DNA of 56,080 nucleotides from an uncultured Nitrososphaerales archaeon (GTDB lineage Archaea; Thermoproteota; Nitrososphaeria; Nitrososphaerales; JACAEJ01), in contig CALLJF010000003.1 of NCBI GenBank assembly GCA_938091495.1, positions 1-56,080 on the forward strand, written 5' to 3'. A program made the translations under genes and the position numbers. This document shows positions 32,769 through 37,431 of this stretch, one piece after another. The first letter of the stretch is position 1. The number at the start of each line of letters is the position of its first letter. The notes beneath the pieces are model-generated. The model had not been told where the DNA came from. It ran no database searches and saw nothing but the letters and a program-made list of their open reading frames with translations.

Positions 32769-33323
32769 TCATTTAGCCAGTAATAGTTCCATGAGAATCT
32801 TCTGGTCTATTTCAGCCCTTGCTCTCCATCCTATGTATAGCATGTCATTCTCATCCTTTGAAAGATAGCCAGTTCTGATGAATCTATCCAAGTTCATGTC
32901 AACTCTCCATTTTGGGAACTTCTCTCTTAAGATTTGTTCAACATCACTTTTTGGGGCTTTGCCTTGCCTTGATATTATCAAAGCTATCGTTGCTGCTAAA
33001 GCAGCTATGTCATCTATTCTCCATCCAGATGCCATTATGTCGCTAACTGCCAAAGGATTCTTTATTGTTATGAAGAACCTTGCTCTATCAAGTTGCTCTT
33101 CAGTGGGATTATCGGTTACTTCAACATCCTCGAATACTACTTTTACTTGAAGGTTTAACTTATCTAGCTCTGAATTCAATAAGTCTATTATGCTCATGAA
33201 GTCCTTGCCCAAAGCTTTCTTTAATTCCCATCCTCTCAATCCGGGTTTCCTATGCCTTTGAAAGAAGAGCAGTTGAGACGCTCTCTTCAGTTTTCTGCTC
33301 ATCTCTGCTTCTTTCTCGCTCAA
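32769..33323 (-). CDS. Tandem winged-helix protein, candidate KITE subunit of an SMC complex (Nse1/Nse3-like)
   Basis: The 184-residue protein begins with a basic coiled segment, then LRGWELKKALG, IIDLLNSELDKLNLQVKVVFEDV, DDIAALAATIALIISRQGKAP and a second domain VEQILREKFPKWRVDMNLDRFIRTGYLSKD ending YIGWRARAEIDQKILMELL. Tandem winged helices with a terminal G-x-R-A-x-x-E-I-D motif recall ScpB and, more closely, Nse3/MAGE and Nse1. Its TTG start overlaps the stop of the kleisin candidate by four bases. With the SMC ATPase upstream this completes the usual three-part set. The assignment is an inference from motif, length and gene order. Confidence 0.6.
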   Translation of the reverse strand: MSEKEAEMSRKLKRASQLLFFQRHRKPGLRGWELKKALGKDFMSIIDLLNSELDKLNLQVKVVFEDVEVTDNPTEEQLDRARFFITIKNPLAVSDIMASGWRIDDIAALAATIALIISRQGKAPKSDVEQILREKFPKWRVDMNLDRFIRTGYLSKDENDMLYIGWRARAEIDQKILMELLLAK

Positions 33324-34123
33324 TTCTTTCCCTCCTTAAGATTCTTCCAATTCTCATAGTTCAGAGTTATGGGTAAAGAGTGAGCCATCTTTTTACTGGA
33401 TAGTTTTCTTGGTTCTTTTAGAGGCATTATGAAGATTCTTTCCTCCAATGGGTCTATTACAAGAGTTGCATAACCTTCTGTCAAGATGAAGCTCACAACA
33501 TAGGCTCTCTCTAAAGTCTCTTCAAAGGTATCTGCATAGACAAAATCCCAATAGTCCGTCTTATCATTAACACTCAATTTACTCATCAATTCTTTTAACA
33601 ATTCCTTCATTTTTTCATCAAAATCCTTTAAAGAGACAATTTTAAGCTTGATCAGATCATCTATCTCAAAAGTTCCAATAGGAGAGCTTGGACCAAAATC
33701 CTCTCTCCATCTCTCACTTAATGGTAAAAGGTTGTTCCAGTAATCTATAGCCTCTTTCAGCCTTTGAGAGAAGATCTGATCTATCCCAACTATAGGGTGC
33801 CAAGCATTAAGAAAGGCTTCAGCTATATTCTTTGAATCTAGCATTCTTATCTTCAGCTCAACGAAGATAGGGTCTATGTAAAGGGATGATGAACGATGCT
33901 TTATCCAATCGCTCTGCAGTTTTATGATAGATGAAATAGCATTAATGGCCTCTATATCTAAGAGCAATTCATCCAACAGCTTCCAATGAGGGAGATACTT
34001 CTTCAGCTTTTCAAGAGAAGCCTTCACATTAACTTCAAAAGGATCGACTCCCCTTCTCTCTACTGTTTTACACATTTCAACGATTCTTATCAGATCCTCT
34101 AGGCTAACTTTGCTTTTTTGCAA
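33320..34123 (-). CDS. Kleisin candidate of an SMC-like complex
   Basis: The 267-residue protein lies between the SMC ATPase, which it overlaps by 20 bases, and the KITE candidate, which it overlaps by four. Its N-terminal half (RGVDPFEVNVKASLEKLKKYL, LLLDIEAINAISSIIKLQSDW, HRSSSLYIDPIFVELKIRM) resembles the ScpA N-terminal region in length and helical pattern. The middle is a linker with SSPIGTFEIDDLIKLKI and the C-terminus has a beta-rich YATLVIDPLEERIFIMPL. No definite family motif identifies it; context carries most of the weight. TTG 34123 is the start. Confidence 0.5.
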   Translation of the reverse strand: MQKSKVSLEDLIRIVEMCKTVERRGVDPFEVNVKASLEKLKKYLPHWKLLDELLLDIEAINAISSIIKLQSDWIKHRSSSLYIDPIFVELKIRMLDSKNIAEAFLNAWHPIVGIDQIFSQRLKEAIDYWNNLLPLSERWREDFGPSSPIGTFEIDDLIKLKIVSLKDFDEKMKELLKELMSKLSVNDKTDYWDFVYADTFEETLERAYVVSFILTEGYATLVIDPLEERIFIMPLKEPRKLSSKKMAHSLPITLNYENWKNLKEGKN

Positions 34124-36035
34124 ATTCTTTCACCACCTTTGCTTCAGACTTTCCTTGCACATTTTGGACTACTATGACATGAACATCATGCTCTGTAACA
34201 GCGATCTGGCTAGGAGTAATCATTAGATATTGAACATCTCTACTTTCTTTGATGGTCGAGACCAAAACTTTGAAGATGGCTTCACGGTTCCTTGGGTCCA
34301 TATGAACGTCAAACTCATCAACCGCTCTAAAAGGAGACATTATGTGTTGCTGTAAGGATAGCAAGAAAGCCATTATAGAGACTGTTCTTTCACCACCACT
34401 TTGAGTGTAAGCATCTAGAACAGATGGCATCCCTCCCCTGAAACTAACTAGAAGTTCTAAACCTGCTGTCTCTAAATCCTCTAAATCGTTGAGCCTCACA
34501 ATACCTGAGGCGTTCATCTTTGATAGTATGCTCTGATATGAAGGATTGACTTCATCTATGAGCTTTTGTAAAACCTTTCTCCAGACTTTTTTCCTTTCCT
34601 CTAACTCTAATGAGGCTCTTTTCCTGTTTTCAGAGACTATGCCTGCCTTTTCCTTCAATTCGTTAAAGGTCTTTGAATAAGCGTTATACATTTCCTCTGC
34701 TTCTTCAGGTATGGCTCCAAGGGATTGAATTCGAGCATCTACTATCTTAATTTCGGCATCTATCTCCATCAAGTTTCTCTCAGTCTCTATTCTTTCACCA
34801 GCTTTTTCCATTAAAGGAGCTAGCTCATCGAGTCTCTTCTCACCATCTTTTATCTCTCTGTTTATATCTTCTATCTCATCTTCTATGCTCTTCTTTCTAA
34901 AGCTTAGTATAGCGTCATTAATCCTGTAGTTGACATACTTCTCTAAACTTGATACTATCTCCTTCTCCAACTTGCCCAGCCCGATCTGAGTCTTAGAGAT
35001 TTTATCTTCAATCTGTTTTTTATTGTCGTCAAAGTTCTTGACTTTCTCAGCCAGTTTGCCTACAGGCTCTGCATTTAATTGGCTTAAAATCCTCTCTGTG
35101 ACCTGAATTTCTGTTATTGCCTTCTCAAGCTCTAGCAAAGAATAGTAAAGTTTCCTTTGTTCCATCTGTTGAAAAGTTAGTTTCTCATAAGATTTTTTTA
35201 TGAATCCCTTCGTCTGATCTATTCTTGATATAATATTCTCTAAAGTATTAGTTTTGTTCTTAAGCCTCTCTTTTAGAGATGCTATTATCCTTTCTTGCCT
35301 TATTATCTGAGCCCATATAACTTCTCTCTCCAAGAATCCTCTTTTCGCTATGAGCTCCTTTCTAAGAAGGCTCTTCTCATATATATCTTTCCAATAATTC
35401 AGAGTTTGCTCAGCACCTTTAAGAGCCTTTAGCGTTGATTCTTCTTCACTTATCAAGCCTGAAAGTTTTTCCTCAGCTTCCATTATTCTTCTTCTGTAAT
35501 CTTGAAAGCCGACAGCCTCTTCTACCATCTTCAGCTTCTCTTGTGGTGAGATGATACTGAACTCTTCCACCATATTCTGGTGCATTATTATGAGCATGTT
35601 ATCAGGATTTATGCCAAAATCTCTAAAGATTCTCGTGACTTGGCTCTTATCTATCTCACGATAATCTGCCTCATACCAGTATGAACCATCCTTTCTCAAG
35701 TAGCGAGAAAGCATAAAGGTATCAGATTTGAAGAAGGGTATAGGTCTCTTACCATTTCTTGGCTTATTGTCAAACATCAGAGTAGCCCTTGCTATATCTT
35801 TTCCATGCCTTATCAGATCACTTAACTTTCTGCTTCTCTCAGTATATGCCTGACCTAAAACCACAGATATAGCAATGAGTATCGAGGATTTGCCAGCCCC
35901 ATTAGGACCACAGATTATGTTCAATCCAGGCTTTAATGGAATCCTTGCATGCTCATAAGACATGAAGTTCTCTAAAATTATCTCGTTTATGGTCACAGGA
36001 ACCTTAGCCTTTCTTTCTGATAACATGCTCATCAT
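34104..36035 (-). CDS. Compact Smc5/6-like SMC ATPase without a recognisable hinge
   Basis: The product of about 643 residues has an ABC/SMC head: ENFMSYEHARIPLKPGLNIICGPNGAGKSS reduced here to its core GPNGAGKSS (Walker A, about 43-51), YTQSGGERTVSIMAFL (signature, about 546-550) and FRAVDEFDVHMD (Walker B). The strings LGQAYTERSRKLSDLI after Walker A and PFRAVDEFDVHMDPRNR resemble eukaryotic Smc6 more than bacterial SMC or Rad50. Between lie about 300 residues of heptad-rich coiled coil. It is about half the usual SMC length, lacks a zinc hook CxxC, and I see no globular hinge. ATG 36035 is preferred over a frame extending into the MBL gene. Confidence 0.85.
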   Translation of the reverse strand: MMSMLSERKAKVPVTINEIILENFMSYEHARIPLKPGLNIICGPNGAGKSSILIAISVVLGQAYTERSRKLSDLIRHGKDIARATLMFDNKPRNGKRPIPFFKSDTFMLSRYLRKDGSYWYEADYREIDKSQVTRIFRDFGINPDNMLIIMHQNMVEEFSIISPQEKLKMVEEAVGFQDYRRRIMEAEEKLSGLISEEESTLKALKGAEQTLNYWKDIYEKSLLRKELIAKRGFLEREVIWAQIIRQERIIASLKERLKNKTNTLENIISRIDQTKGFIKKSYEKLTFQQMEQRKLYYSLLELEKAITEIQVTERILSQLNAEPVGKLAEKVKNFDDNKKQIEDKISKTQIGLGKLEKEIVSSLEKYVNYRINDAILSFRKKSIEDEIEDINREIKDGEKRLDELAPLMEKAGERIETERNLMEIDAEIKIVDARIQSLGAIPEEAEEMYNAYSKTFNELKEKAGIVSENRKRASLELEERKKVWRKVLQKLIDEVNPSYQSILSKMNASGIVRLNDLEDLETAGLELLVSFRGGMPSVLDAYTQSGGERTVSIMAFLLSLQQHIMSPFRAVDEFDVHMDPRNREAIFKVLVSTIKESRDVQYLMITPSQIAVTEHDVHVIVVQNVQGKSEAKVVKEFAKKQS

Positions 36036-36060: not shown

Positions 36061-36675
36061 TTAAAGGAAACCTCCCATAAATCTGATGAAACCATCTTTC
36101 GTCCTAAAACTTAAGGCATGGTTATGATCTTTTTCATAACCTATCGTTGAATAAGGTCTTTTACCATAATCGTGCCCAGGATAAATCCTAACATCATCAT
36201 CCAACTCCATTAACCTTAGTAAGCTATCATATAATTCCCCAGGATTTCCTCCTGGTAGATCTGTCCTGCCACAACTTCCTACGAAAAGAGTGTCTCCAGT
36301 TAACAGCTTTTTGTCTATCAAAAGGCATATGCTTTCAGGGGAGTGGCCAGGTGTATGAATGACTCTCATCCTTAATTCTCCTATCTTTATTATATCATCA
36401 TCTCCCACAGATATGTCTTTCATGGCTTTTGCTTTCTCATGCATTACTATCTTGGCTTTTGTCTTTGATGCTAAATCTTCATTCGCCTTTATATGATCAA
36501 AGTGAGCATGAGTGTTTATTATGTATGCTATTCTTAGATTATGCTTATCAGCCTCTTTTAGTATTCTATCAGCATCATCTGCTGGGTCTACAACCGCAGC
36601 AAGACCAGAATCTTCATCCCCTATCAAATAGGTGAAGTTCATCATTTCTCCAATAAGCATCTGGACAAAGATCAT
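36061..36675 (-). CDS. MBL-fold hydrolase, glyoxalase II / persulfide dioxygenase-like
   Basis: The 204-residue protein has the metal-binding motif NTHAHFDHIKA, HTPGHSPESICLL, TGDTLFVGSCGRTDLPGGN and YPGHDYGKRPYSTIG. The GRTD motif after the second-metal aspartate is typical of ETHE1-type persulfide dioxygenases and related glyoxalase II proteins. It ends 25 bases before the SMC gene start on the same strand. The likely start is one of the ATGs near 36642-36675 (MLIGEMMNFTYLI). Sulfur or thioester substrate undetermined. Confidence 0.85.
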   Translation of the reverse strand: MIFVQMLIGEMMNFTYLIGDEDSGLAAVVDPADDADRILKEADKHNLRIAYIINTHAHFDHIKANEDLASKTKAKIVMHEKAKAMKDISVGDDDIIKIGELRMRVIHTPGHSPESICLLIDKKLLTGDTLFVGSCGRTDLPGGNPGELYDSLLRLMELDDDVRIYPGHDYGKRPYSTIGYEKDHNHALSFRTKDGFIRFMGGFL

Positions 36676-36747: not shown

Positions 36748-37431
36748 ATGGTAACTGCAGGAAAGGTCTTTGTCGTTAAGGAAGAGATTGATATTGATAC
36801 AATAGCATCTAAACTCAAGGACTTTAAGACTGAAGAAATCCAAAAAATCGATGATCGTGAACTAAAGCTGATAACAGAGATAAGCGATATGAAGATGGTC
36901 ACAGATGCCCTTCAAGGAAGGTATTCGCAAGACCAGGTCATTACAATATATCATAGAGGAGAAAGCATACCAACAGTCAAAACCATAGAAGCTCCCTTCA
37001 TCTTTTCTGAATATGAGGGTAGAGTATTGCTAACTGTATTGGAGAAGAAGATGCAAGCGAATAGCATTGCGAATCAGATCAGCAAGATATTGTTCTTGAC
37101 TACCGGGCATATAGTAGAGGCAAGAATTGCTCCAGATGTAATGAGGAGATTTCATGAGCAGAACTTTGAGGATACAAAAGTAGTATTCTTCGATGATGTT
37201 GATATTCCTAACGTTAACAAATTGTCTCTTTATGGATCGGGCTTGGCAGACACAACATTATACAACGACTATTGCAGTCATGGTAATGTATGGTACATTG
37301 TGATAAAGCCAAAAAAGTATGGTTTTATAGTAGGAGTAACAAGAGATGGAGTGGTTACAATATTCAGCAGAGTAGAGAAGGATGATTTCATAAACTACGT
37401 AATAAACGAGATATATCCTTTGATCTCTTAA
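36748..37431 (+). CDS. Conserved-looking archaeal protein of unknown function
   Basis: This 227-residue protein shows two similar-sized halves: KLKDFKTEEIQKIDDRELKLITEIS with a beta-alpha pattern, then EGRVLLTVLEKKMQANSIANQIS, and a late VWYIVIKPKKYGFIVGVTRDGVV. No catalytic motif or membrane segment is evident. It is divergent from the MBL/SMC operon with a 72-base gap and converges with the following membrane-protein gene, overlapping it by four bases. Confidence 0.75.
   Translation: MVTAGKVFVVKEEIDIDTIASKLKDFKTEEIQKIDDRELKLITEISDMKMVTDALQGRYSQDQVITIYHRGESIPTVKTIEAPFIFSEYEGRVLLTVLEKKMQANSIANQISKILFLTTGHIVEARIAPDVMRRFHEQNFEDTKVVFFDDVDIPNVNKLSLYGSGLADTTLYNDYCSHGNVWYIVIKPKKYGFIVGVTRDGVVTIFSRVEKDDFINYVINEIYPLIS

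What the first reader, a model, noticed from the sequence alone, without database searches (positions are those of the whole stretch)
32769..36035. Three-gene operon encoding a compact Smc5/6-like complex (SMC, kleisin candidate, KITE candidate)
Directly seen: three overlapping minus-strand genes. The first has an SMC/ABC head whose Walker-A-following segment and DEFDVHMD Walker B resemble Smc6. The second is a mostly helical 267-residue protein. The third has tandem winged helices ending in a GWRARAEID motif reminiscent of MAGE/Nse. Known: SMC complexes consist of SMC, kleisin and, in Smc5/6 and bacterial condensins, KITE subunits. Inferred: this is an archaeal relative of Smc5/6 with half-length arms and no visible hinge. 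That would mean a different way of dimerising, perhaps through the kleisin/KITE or head only.
Basis: partly seen in the sequence, partly recalled or inferred. Interest (0 to 1): 0.82.

Follow-up and report, generated by a model that had tools for sequence, protein, structure and literature searches.

The report
Hinge-less archaeal Smc5/6-type complex
Many archaea carry a three-gene set for a small DNA-handling machine whose parts match the core of our own Smc5/6 genome-protection complex (motor, connector and connector-binding subunit), but whose motor has half-length arms and lacks the hinge that pairs two motors in known SMC complexes.

Summary
In detail: three overlapping minus-strand genes at 32769-36035.

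Gene 1 is a complete SMC ATPase. In a head tree it groups with eukaryotic Smc5 and Smc6 (UFBoot 100), apart from canonical archaeal SMC, Smc2/3 and Rad50. AlphaFold2 on a relative shows two arm helices joined by a 7-residue turn: no hinge, no zinc hook.

Gene 2 is a kleisin. Its family profile picks Nse4 first out of the whole PDB and carries the Nse4_C domain.

Gene 3 is a tandem winged-helix KITE. Its model (pLDDT 91) matches Nse1 and Nse3 first among all solved structures.

The trio is contiguous in about 72 of 81 loci. In 299 Thermoproteota genomes the three occur together in 121 of 124 carriers. A second group, probably Hadarchaeota, has the KITE gene in 17 of 21 genomes. Eleven of 36 carriers show no canonical SMC. 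An Lhr-type helicase gene often lies next to it.

An archaeal "SMC5/6-related" SMC was already published. The Nse4-like and Nse1/3-like partners and the missing hinge are, in the papers I could search, not described. Complex formation, dimerisation and function are inferred. Asgard archaea could not be tested.

The parts
34104..36035 (-). Compact Smc5/6-type SMC ATPase (about 643 aa; the ORF is open from an ATG at 36095, but the true start is probably about 36035-36026). Walker A 35886-35909, signature SGGER 34386-34400, Walker B 34296-34325. N- and C-terminal arms form a hairpin without hinge or zinc hook.
   Evidence: Pfam SMC_N 9e-35; best PDB hits Smc5 5.6e-30 and Smc6; tree; AF2 model of relative L022; start site and motif positions
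33320..34123 (-). Nse4-like (delta) kleisin, 267 aa: N-terminal helices (third long helix about residues 51-79) and C-terminal winged helix (about residues 169-234)
   Evidence: Pfam Nse4_C 2.1e-4 in the window protein, 21/40 family members, best 5.6e-9; family profile versus PDB: top 4 hits all Nse4, then ScpA; AF2 secondary structure
32769..33323 (-). KITE protein, 184 aa, tandem winged helices, Nse1/Nse3-like, without a RING domain. A Shine-Dalgarno-like AAGGAGGG lies just upstream of its TTG start.
   Evidence: AF2 pLDDT 90.6; Foldseek top 4 = Nse1/Nse3 chains, then MukE, ScpB; Pfam MAGE and SMC_Nse1 are the two families hit by most members; upstream sequence
36748..37431 (+). Divergent gene of unknown function, a conserved neighbour of the trio in relatives (context only, not a proposed subunit)
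   Evidence: homologue within about 4.5 kb of the trio in 30 of 72 loci, 26 of them upstream; no Pfam match reaching the curated cut-off and no NCBIfam hit

Best explanation
The operon encodes an archaeal Smc5/6-type SMC-kleisin-KITE complex in a reduced, probably homo-oligomeric form: one compact SMC (two copies), one Nse4-like kleisin and one KITE (two copies, standing where eukaryotes use Nse1 plus Nse3). Shown: a complete SMC ATPase head of Smc5/6 type, an antiparallel arm hairpin of about 147 residues (roughly 22 nm) without hinge, a kleisin with N-terminal helices and a C-terminal winged helix of Nse4 type, a KITE fold nearest to Nse1/Nse3, and strict co-occurrence of the three genes. 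Inferred: the kleisin's third helix docks on the SMC neck (near invariant R501/W505) and its winged helix on the other head's cap; the KITE dimer binds the kleisin middle; ATP closes the heads so that DNA is clamped between heads and KITE. With no hinge, the two SMC subunits are held together by kleisin, KITE and ATP (perhaps also arm tips), giving a head-centred DNA clamp or short-step translocator rather than a large ring. Likely role: chromosome maintenance, probably DNA repair or fork processing together with the often adjacent Lhr-type helicase; in lineages without canonical SMC it may be the only SMC motor.
For: SMC: best PDB matches are Smc5 and Smc6. In the head tree the split {compact, Smc5, Smc6} versus {canonical, Smc2, Smc3, Rad50} has SH-aLRT 99.9 and UFBoot 100. 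The motifs combine TQSGGER(x)VS of Smc5 with DEFDVxMD of Smc6. The second-best Foldseek hit and most of the top 12 are Smc5/6 chains. No hinge: one helix 165-311, a turn 312-318, then helix 319-411. Kleisin: profile A1 ranks yeast Nse4 (9e-5) and human EID3 (3e-4) first among 177,635 sequences, then ScpA C- and N-terminal domains (0.07); Nse4_C hits 21/40 members and passes the Pfam cut-off in 3 genomes; weak second hits in other genomes fall on the winged-helix region of about 220-260 aa frames, consistent with ScpA. KITE: Foldseek E 1.8e-5 to 9e-5 to Nse1/Nse3; profile hits MAGE/Nse3 and Nse1 at 0.01-0.05. Co-occurrence: 123 SMC, 123 kleisin, 122 KITE genomes of 299, the same genomes. Also in a second group. 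Lhr-type helicase adjacent in 37/72 loci, 17 clusters below 60% SMC identity. Carriers without canonical SMC.
Against: No physical interaction is shown, and the tools return no interface scores or coordinates. KITE sequence evidence alone is weak (E 0.01-0.2); it rests on the fold. The window kleisin's Nse4_C score (21.9 bits) is below Pfam's cut-off (26). The tree has only four Smc5/6 sequences and about 287 columns; the sister relation itself has UFBoot 87, and long-branch attraction is possible. Lack of a hinge removes a defining SMC feature. No direct functional data; Lhr adjacency is correlative and is absent next to the trio in this window.
Confidence: 0.82

Rival explanations
1. A defence system of the Lamassu or Wadjet kind: a short SMC-like sensor with two small partners, acting against plasmids or viruses.
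For: LmuB of Lamassu is also about 650 aa with about 20 nm coils (PMC10586767), and PADLOC LmuB models align nearly full length at 2e-18. Human Smc5/6 itself restricts extrachromosomal DNA (PMC10586767).
Against: No PADLOC hit for the two partners and no nuclease or effector gene. Walker B glutamate intact (DE), whereas LmuB generally carries Q. Partners match Nse4 and Nse1/3, not LmuA/LmuC or JetA/B. The three genes are conserved as a set across whole lineages with constant composition, unlike patchy defence genes. An antiviral side role of a Smc5/6-type complex stays possible.
Confidence: 0.08
2. A Rad50/SbcC or ASRP/ClsN-type zinc-hook protein with unrelated small neighbours.
For: Similar size to some archaeal Rad50 (673 aa in the same genome) and ASRP (593 aa model, 50 bits).
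Against: Tree groups it with Smc5/6, away from Rad50; NCBIfam SMC models outscore Rad50 and ASRP (156 versus 57 and 50 bits); no CxxC in the arm region of any of the SMC sequences checked; the genome has its own Rad50-Mre11-HerA-NurA cluster.
Confidence: 0.03
3. A degenerate duplicate of the canonical archaeal Smc-ScpA-ScpB operon that lost its hinge; the resemblance to Smc5/6 would then be convergence.
For: Same three-part logic and gene order as the canonical smc-scpA-scpB set in the same genome.
Against: The head does not branch inside canonical archaeal SMC; the kleisin profile prefers Nse4 to ScpA by about three orders of magnitude in E; KITE Foldseek E is better for Nse1/3 than for ScpB (1.8e-5 versus 5.8e-3); many genomes have only the compact set.
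Confidence: 0.05
4. The trio is a Smc5/6-type complex, but two SMC subunits dimerise through a cryptic arm-tip contact, so it is still a closed ring with half-size lumen and acts as a normal loop-extruding SMC. (A variant of the best explanation, not exclusive of it.)
For: All other SMC-kleisin motors known to me dimerise at the distal end; the tip turn is the low-confidence part of the arms (pLDDT 55).
Against: The tip region is neither conserved nor constant in length: 175-304 residues between W261 and W505.
Confidence: 0.3

Closest known systems
Eukaryotic Smc5/6 core (Smc5, Smc6, Nse4, Nse1, Nse3)
   Same: SMC heads of the same clade; Nse4-type kleisin with C-terminal winged helix; KITE with Nse1/Nse3 as nearest folds; SMC + kleisin + KITE composition
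   Different: One SMC and one KITE gene instead of two each; no hinge; arms of about 147 residues; no RING on the KITE; no Nse2 or Nse5/6 found in the operon
[quoted passage not shown]
   Same: An archaeal SMC branching with eukaryotic SMC5 and SMC6; very probably the same SMC family
   Different: As far as the 2022 paper shows, described only as a tree lineage; its text has no mention of kleisin or Nse partners. I could not read the 2021 paper, so identity of the families is inferred
Canonical archaeal/bacterial Smc-ScpA-ScpB
   Same: Same three-part operon logic; head fold (Foldseek top hit 5xei); distant homology of the kleisin winged helix
   Different: Different head clade, about 1190 aa with hinge, ScpA/ScpB partners; present separately in this genome
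Lamassu LmuB
   Same: Similar length and short coils
   Different: LmuB is Rad50-like, often with zinc hook and Walker B E-to-Q; partners are an effector and LmuC
ASRP family (coalescin ClsN, Sph)
   Same: Archaeal, short SMC-like protein
   Different: Zinc hook, separate clade, no conserved flanking genes (PMC9389158)

Membership tests
Smc5/6 complex | SMC ATPase head of the Smc5/6 clade with intact Walker A, signature and Walker B | tested here: met
   Tree UFBoot 100 for compact + Smc5 + Smc6 versus the rest; motifs; PDB ranking
Smc5/6 complex | Delta-kleisin Nse4 (Nse4_C winged helix, N-terminal helical domain) | tested here: met
   helix layout. The window protein alone is below the Pfam cut-off
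Smc5/6 complex | KITE subunit(s) related to Nse1/Nse3 | tested here: met
   Fold: top four PDB hits are Nse1/Nse3; sequence weak. A single KITE instead of two
Smc5/6 complex | Heterodimer of two different SMC proteins | tested here: not met
   One compact SMC gene in this genome among the SMC_N hits examined; a homodimer is inferred
Smc5/6 complex | SMC hinge domain between the arms | tested here: not met
   7-residue turn instead; no SMC_hinge hit, positive control hit
Smc5/6 complex | Nse2 SUMO ligase, Nse1 RING, Nse5/6 | tested here: not met
   KITE is 184 aa with no RING; no further conserved co-directional subunit gene among neighbours
Smc5/6 complex | Physical complex of SMC, kleisin and KITE | not testable with these tools
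   Only co-occurrence and operon structure
Canonical SMC-ScpAB | Member of NCBIfam SMC_prok_A/B equivalog; hinge; ScpA/ScpB | tested here: not met
   156 bits against a cut-off of 729; no hinge; the window's gene 3 has no ScpB hit while the genome's own ScpB is recognised at 3e-30
Rad50/SbcC or ASRP | Zinc hook CxxC at arm tip; Rad50-type head | tested here: not met
   No CxxC in the arms; tree
Lamassu / Wadjet defence | Effector (LmuA, JetD) and matching partner proteins | tested here: not met
   No PADLOC hit for the partner proteins

The most novel reading that the evidence does not exclude
This is the archaeal homologue of the whole Smc5/6 core (SMC + Nse4 + KITE). It shows that the complex predates eukaryotes as an assembled unit, that Smc5/Smc6 and Nse1/Nse3 arose by duplication of single archaeal genes, and that a SMC-kleisin-KITE machine works without any hinge or large ring, in some lineages as the only SMC motor of the chromosome.
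Probability: 0.4. Interest if true: 0.93.

Novelty: new variant of a known kind. Interest (0 to 1): 0.8.

Why it matters
The origin of Smc5/6 is open: an archaeal SMC relative is known from trees, but its kleisin and KITE partners were, in the papers I could search, not described in prokaryotes. A complete archaeal counterpart would make the duplication history of Smc5/Smc6 and Nse1/Nse3 testable and provide a minimal, thermostable three-protein system for structure and single-molecule work. A hinge-less SMC-kleisin-KITE complex asks directly which SMC activities (DNA clamping, translocation, loop extrusion, entrapment) need a hinge and long arms. Lineages with no canonical SMC show where to test it as sole chromosome organiser.

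Tried and rejected
L086 looked like a kleisin-KITE fusion, but the join runs through masked N bases, so it is no evidence. The second 677-aa SMC_N hit in the genome (C19) was checked as a possible heterodimer partner: it is the Rad50 of a Mre11-Rad50-HerA-NurA cluster. The C54 hit (831 aa) is another Rad50-like protein with CPVC. A stop-readthrough of in-frame SMC-kleisin neighbours (L022) was used only as a modelling device to fold both in one job; no docking could be read, because coordinates are not returned. The phylum of L084 (record titled Halobacteriales) gave 2 of 60 positive: rare there, possibly transfer or misbinning. The TopoIB neighbour (9 loci) falls in one SMC identity cluster only, so it carries little weight.
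Full report
OBSERVATION. The overlaps are 20 and 4 nt. A strong Shine-Dalgarno-like AAGGAGGG precedes gene 3. The ATPase has complete Walker A, signature and Walker B motifs.

GENE 1, HEAD. Pfam gives SMC_N at 9e-35. NCBIfam's canonical prokaryotic SMC models score only 156 bits against a cut-off of 729. phmmer against all PDB sequences ranks yeast Smc5 first (5.6e-30), with Smc6 high. The signature TQSGGERxVS is that of Smc5, and Walker B DEFDVxMD is that of Smc6, as one would expect of a relative that predates their split (inference). A maximum-likelihood tree of the head used 287 columns: four Smc5/6, four Smc2/3, nine canonical archaeal SMC, two Rad50-like and 20 compact sequences. It separates compact + Smc5 + Smc6 from everything else with SH-aLRT 99.9 and UFBoot 100. 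The compact family is monophyletic (96/97), and Smc5+Smc6 is its sister with weaker support (73.5/87). Eukaryotic letters were taken from PDB chains as printed by HMMER. This agrees with the 'SMC5/6-related' archaeal lineage of Yoshinaga and Inagaki, quoted in PMC9389158.

GENE 1, ARMS. Lengths over 77 relatives are 570-692 aa, median 625. AlphaFold2 (pLDDT 85, 70 sequences) of a relative shows one helix 165-311, a 7-residue turn, then helix 319-411 and shorter helices back to the head. So the arms are a plain hairpin of about 147 residues, roughly 22 nm at 1.5 A per residue; Bacillus Smc arms are about 47 nm (PMC5344682 abstract). There is no hinge domain and no CxxC hook. The canonical SMC of the same genome serves as positive control for the hinge model (8e-19). 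The tip region is not conserved; the conserved arm residues lie near the head (W235, W261, R501, W505).

GENE 2. The profile of 40 relatives, run against 177,635 PDB sequences, returns Nse4 in all four top places (yeast 9e-5, human EID3 3e-4), followed by ScpA C- and N-terminal domains at 0.07. Pfam Nse4_C is hit by 21 of 40 members, best 5.6e-9, and exceeds Pfam's cut-off in three genomes. The predicted layout is three N-terminal helices, a middle segment, and a C-terminal H-E-H-H-E-E winged helix, the kleisin plan. In fission yeast the third helix of the Nse4 N-domain binds the Smc6 neck (PMC7297730); the long third helix here and the invariant R501/W505 of the SMC neck are the likely counterparts (inference).

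GENE 3. AlphaFold2 gives a confident tandem winged-helix model (pLDDT 90.6, pTM 0.74). Foldseek against the whole PDB puts Nse1, Nse1, MAGE-G1 (Nse3 family) and Nse3 in the first four places (E 1.8e-5 to 9.3e-5), then MukE (6e-4) and ScpB (6e-3). Sequence profiles give the same names weakly: MAGE/Nse3 0.01, Nse1 0.04; MAGE and SMC_Nse1 are the two Pfam families hit by most members. There is one KITE per operon, so a homodimer in the place of Nse1-Nse3 is inferred.

CONSERVATION. From 80 fetched relatives plus the window, 76 loci have the kleisin and 74 the KITE. Nearly all are in the order SMC-kleisin-KITE with overlaps or tiny gaps; most missing cases run off a contig, L021 has a 2.7 kb insertion, and L051 has its SMC alone but its genome has a KITE. 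In a sample of 299 Thermoproteota genomes SMC, kleisin and KITE are found in 123, 123 and 122 genomes. Comparing the lists by eye, they differ only in G034, G130 and G292, where a piece is cut or fragmented, so all three are in 121 of 124. Family f2 of the window's order, whose 20 listed members were all negative, has canonical SMC only. A disjoint group around L040 (record titled Hadesarchaea) has the KITE in 17 of 21 genomes; another phylum only 2 of 60. In a sub-sample, 36 genomes carry the compact system and 11 of these (families f7, f10, f27) show no canonical SMC at 1e-30 beyond the compact protein itself (read).

CONTEXT. In 37 of 72 loci (17 SMC clusters below 60% identity) a gene for an Lhr-type helicase (WH_Lhr domain) lies just downstream, mostly convergent and often touching. 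In 30 loci, including the window, a 227-aa gene of unknown function lies nearby. The genome also encodes canonical Smc-ScpA-ScpB and Mre11-Rad50-HerA-NurA, so the compact complex is an additional system here.

MECHANISM. Shown: the parts list, folds, ATPase motifs, absence of hinge, co-inheritance. Without a hinge the dimer must be held by kleisin/KITE/ATP or by a cryptic tip contact. A clamp or short-step translocator in repair or fork processing is my best guess. Confidence is about 0.82 that this is a Smc5/6-type SMC-kleisin-KITE complex, about 0.5 for the repair role, and about 0.6 for hinge-free assembly.

RIVALS AND LIMITS. A Lamassu/Wadjet-type defence system is disfavoured by intact Walker B, unmatched partners and lineage-wide conservation. 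Rad50/ASRP and a degenerate canonical operon are disfavoured by the tree and the partner matches. Limits: no interface could be computed, the tree has few eukaryotes, Asgard archaea were out of reach, and the 2021 paper and preprints could not be read, so priority for the partners is not proven.

Noticed in passing
L018 6301-9213 and 36 further loci next to the trio: An Lhr-type helicase gene (WH_Lhr, DEAD_assoc) lies beside the compact SMC trio in 37 of 72 loci, mostly convergent, in 17 divergent SMC clusters; a possible functional partner.
   Followed up: partly
window 36748-37431 (+): 227-aa protein of unknown function whose homologues lie within about 4.5 kb of the trio in 30 loci, mostly divergent upstream; no Pfam match over the cut-off and no NCBIfam match.
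   Followed up: partly
L103 (G014 C17) and L106 (G022 C22): Canonical SMC genes of several archaea appear to carry an intein inside the Walker A motif (reading frame starts '...VVHN|SNLIDA'; Pfam Intein_splicing 4.5e-7 in L106); several sampled genomes match the SMC model only from position 37 on.
   Followed up: partly
L023-L025, L027, L029, L030, L032-L034, upstream of the compact SMC: A eukaryote-type topoisomerase IB gene lies divergently upstream in one clade (Methanomethylicia titles).
   Followed up: partly
L012 2986-5481 (G000 contig C54): A further 831-aa Rad50-like protein with a CPVC hook and degenerate signature, next to two small co-directional genes, one with CxxC pairs.
   Followed up: no
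G000 contig C27 (L011 2821-7598): Canonical smc-scpA-scpB operon in which ScpA (220 aa) has no Pfam hit at 1e-3 although ScpB is clear.
   Followed up: no
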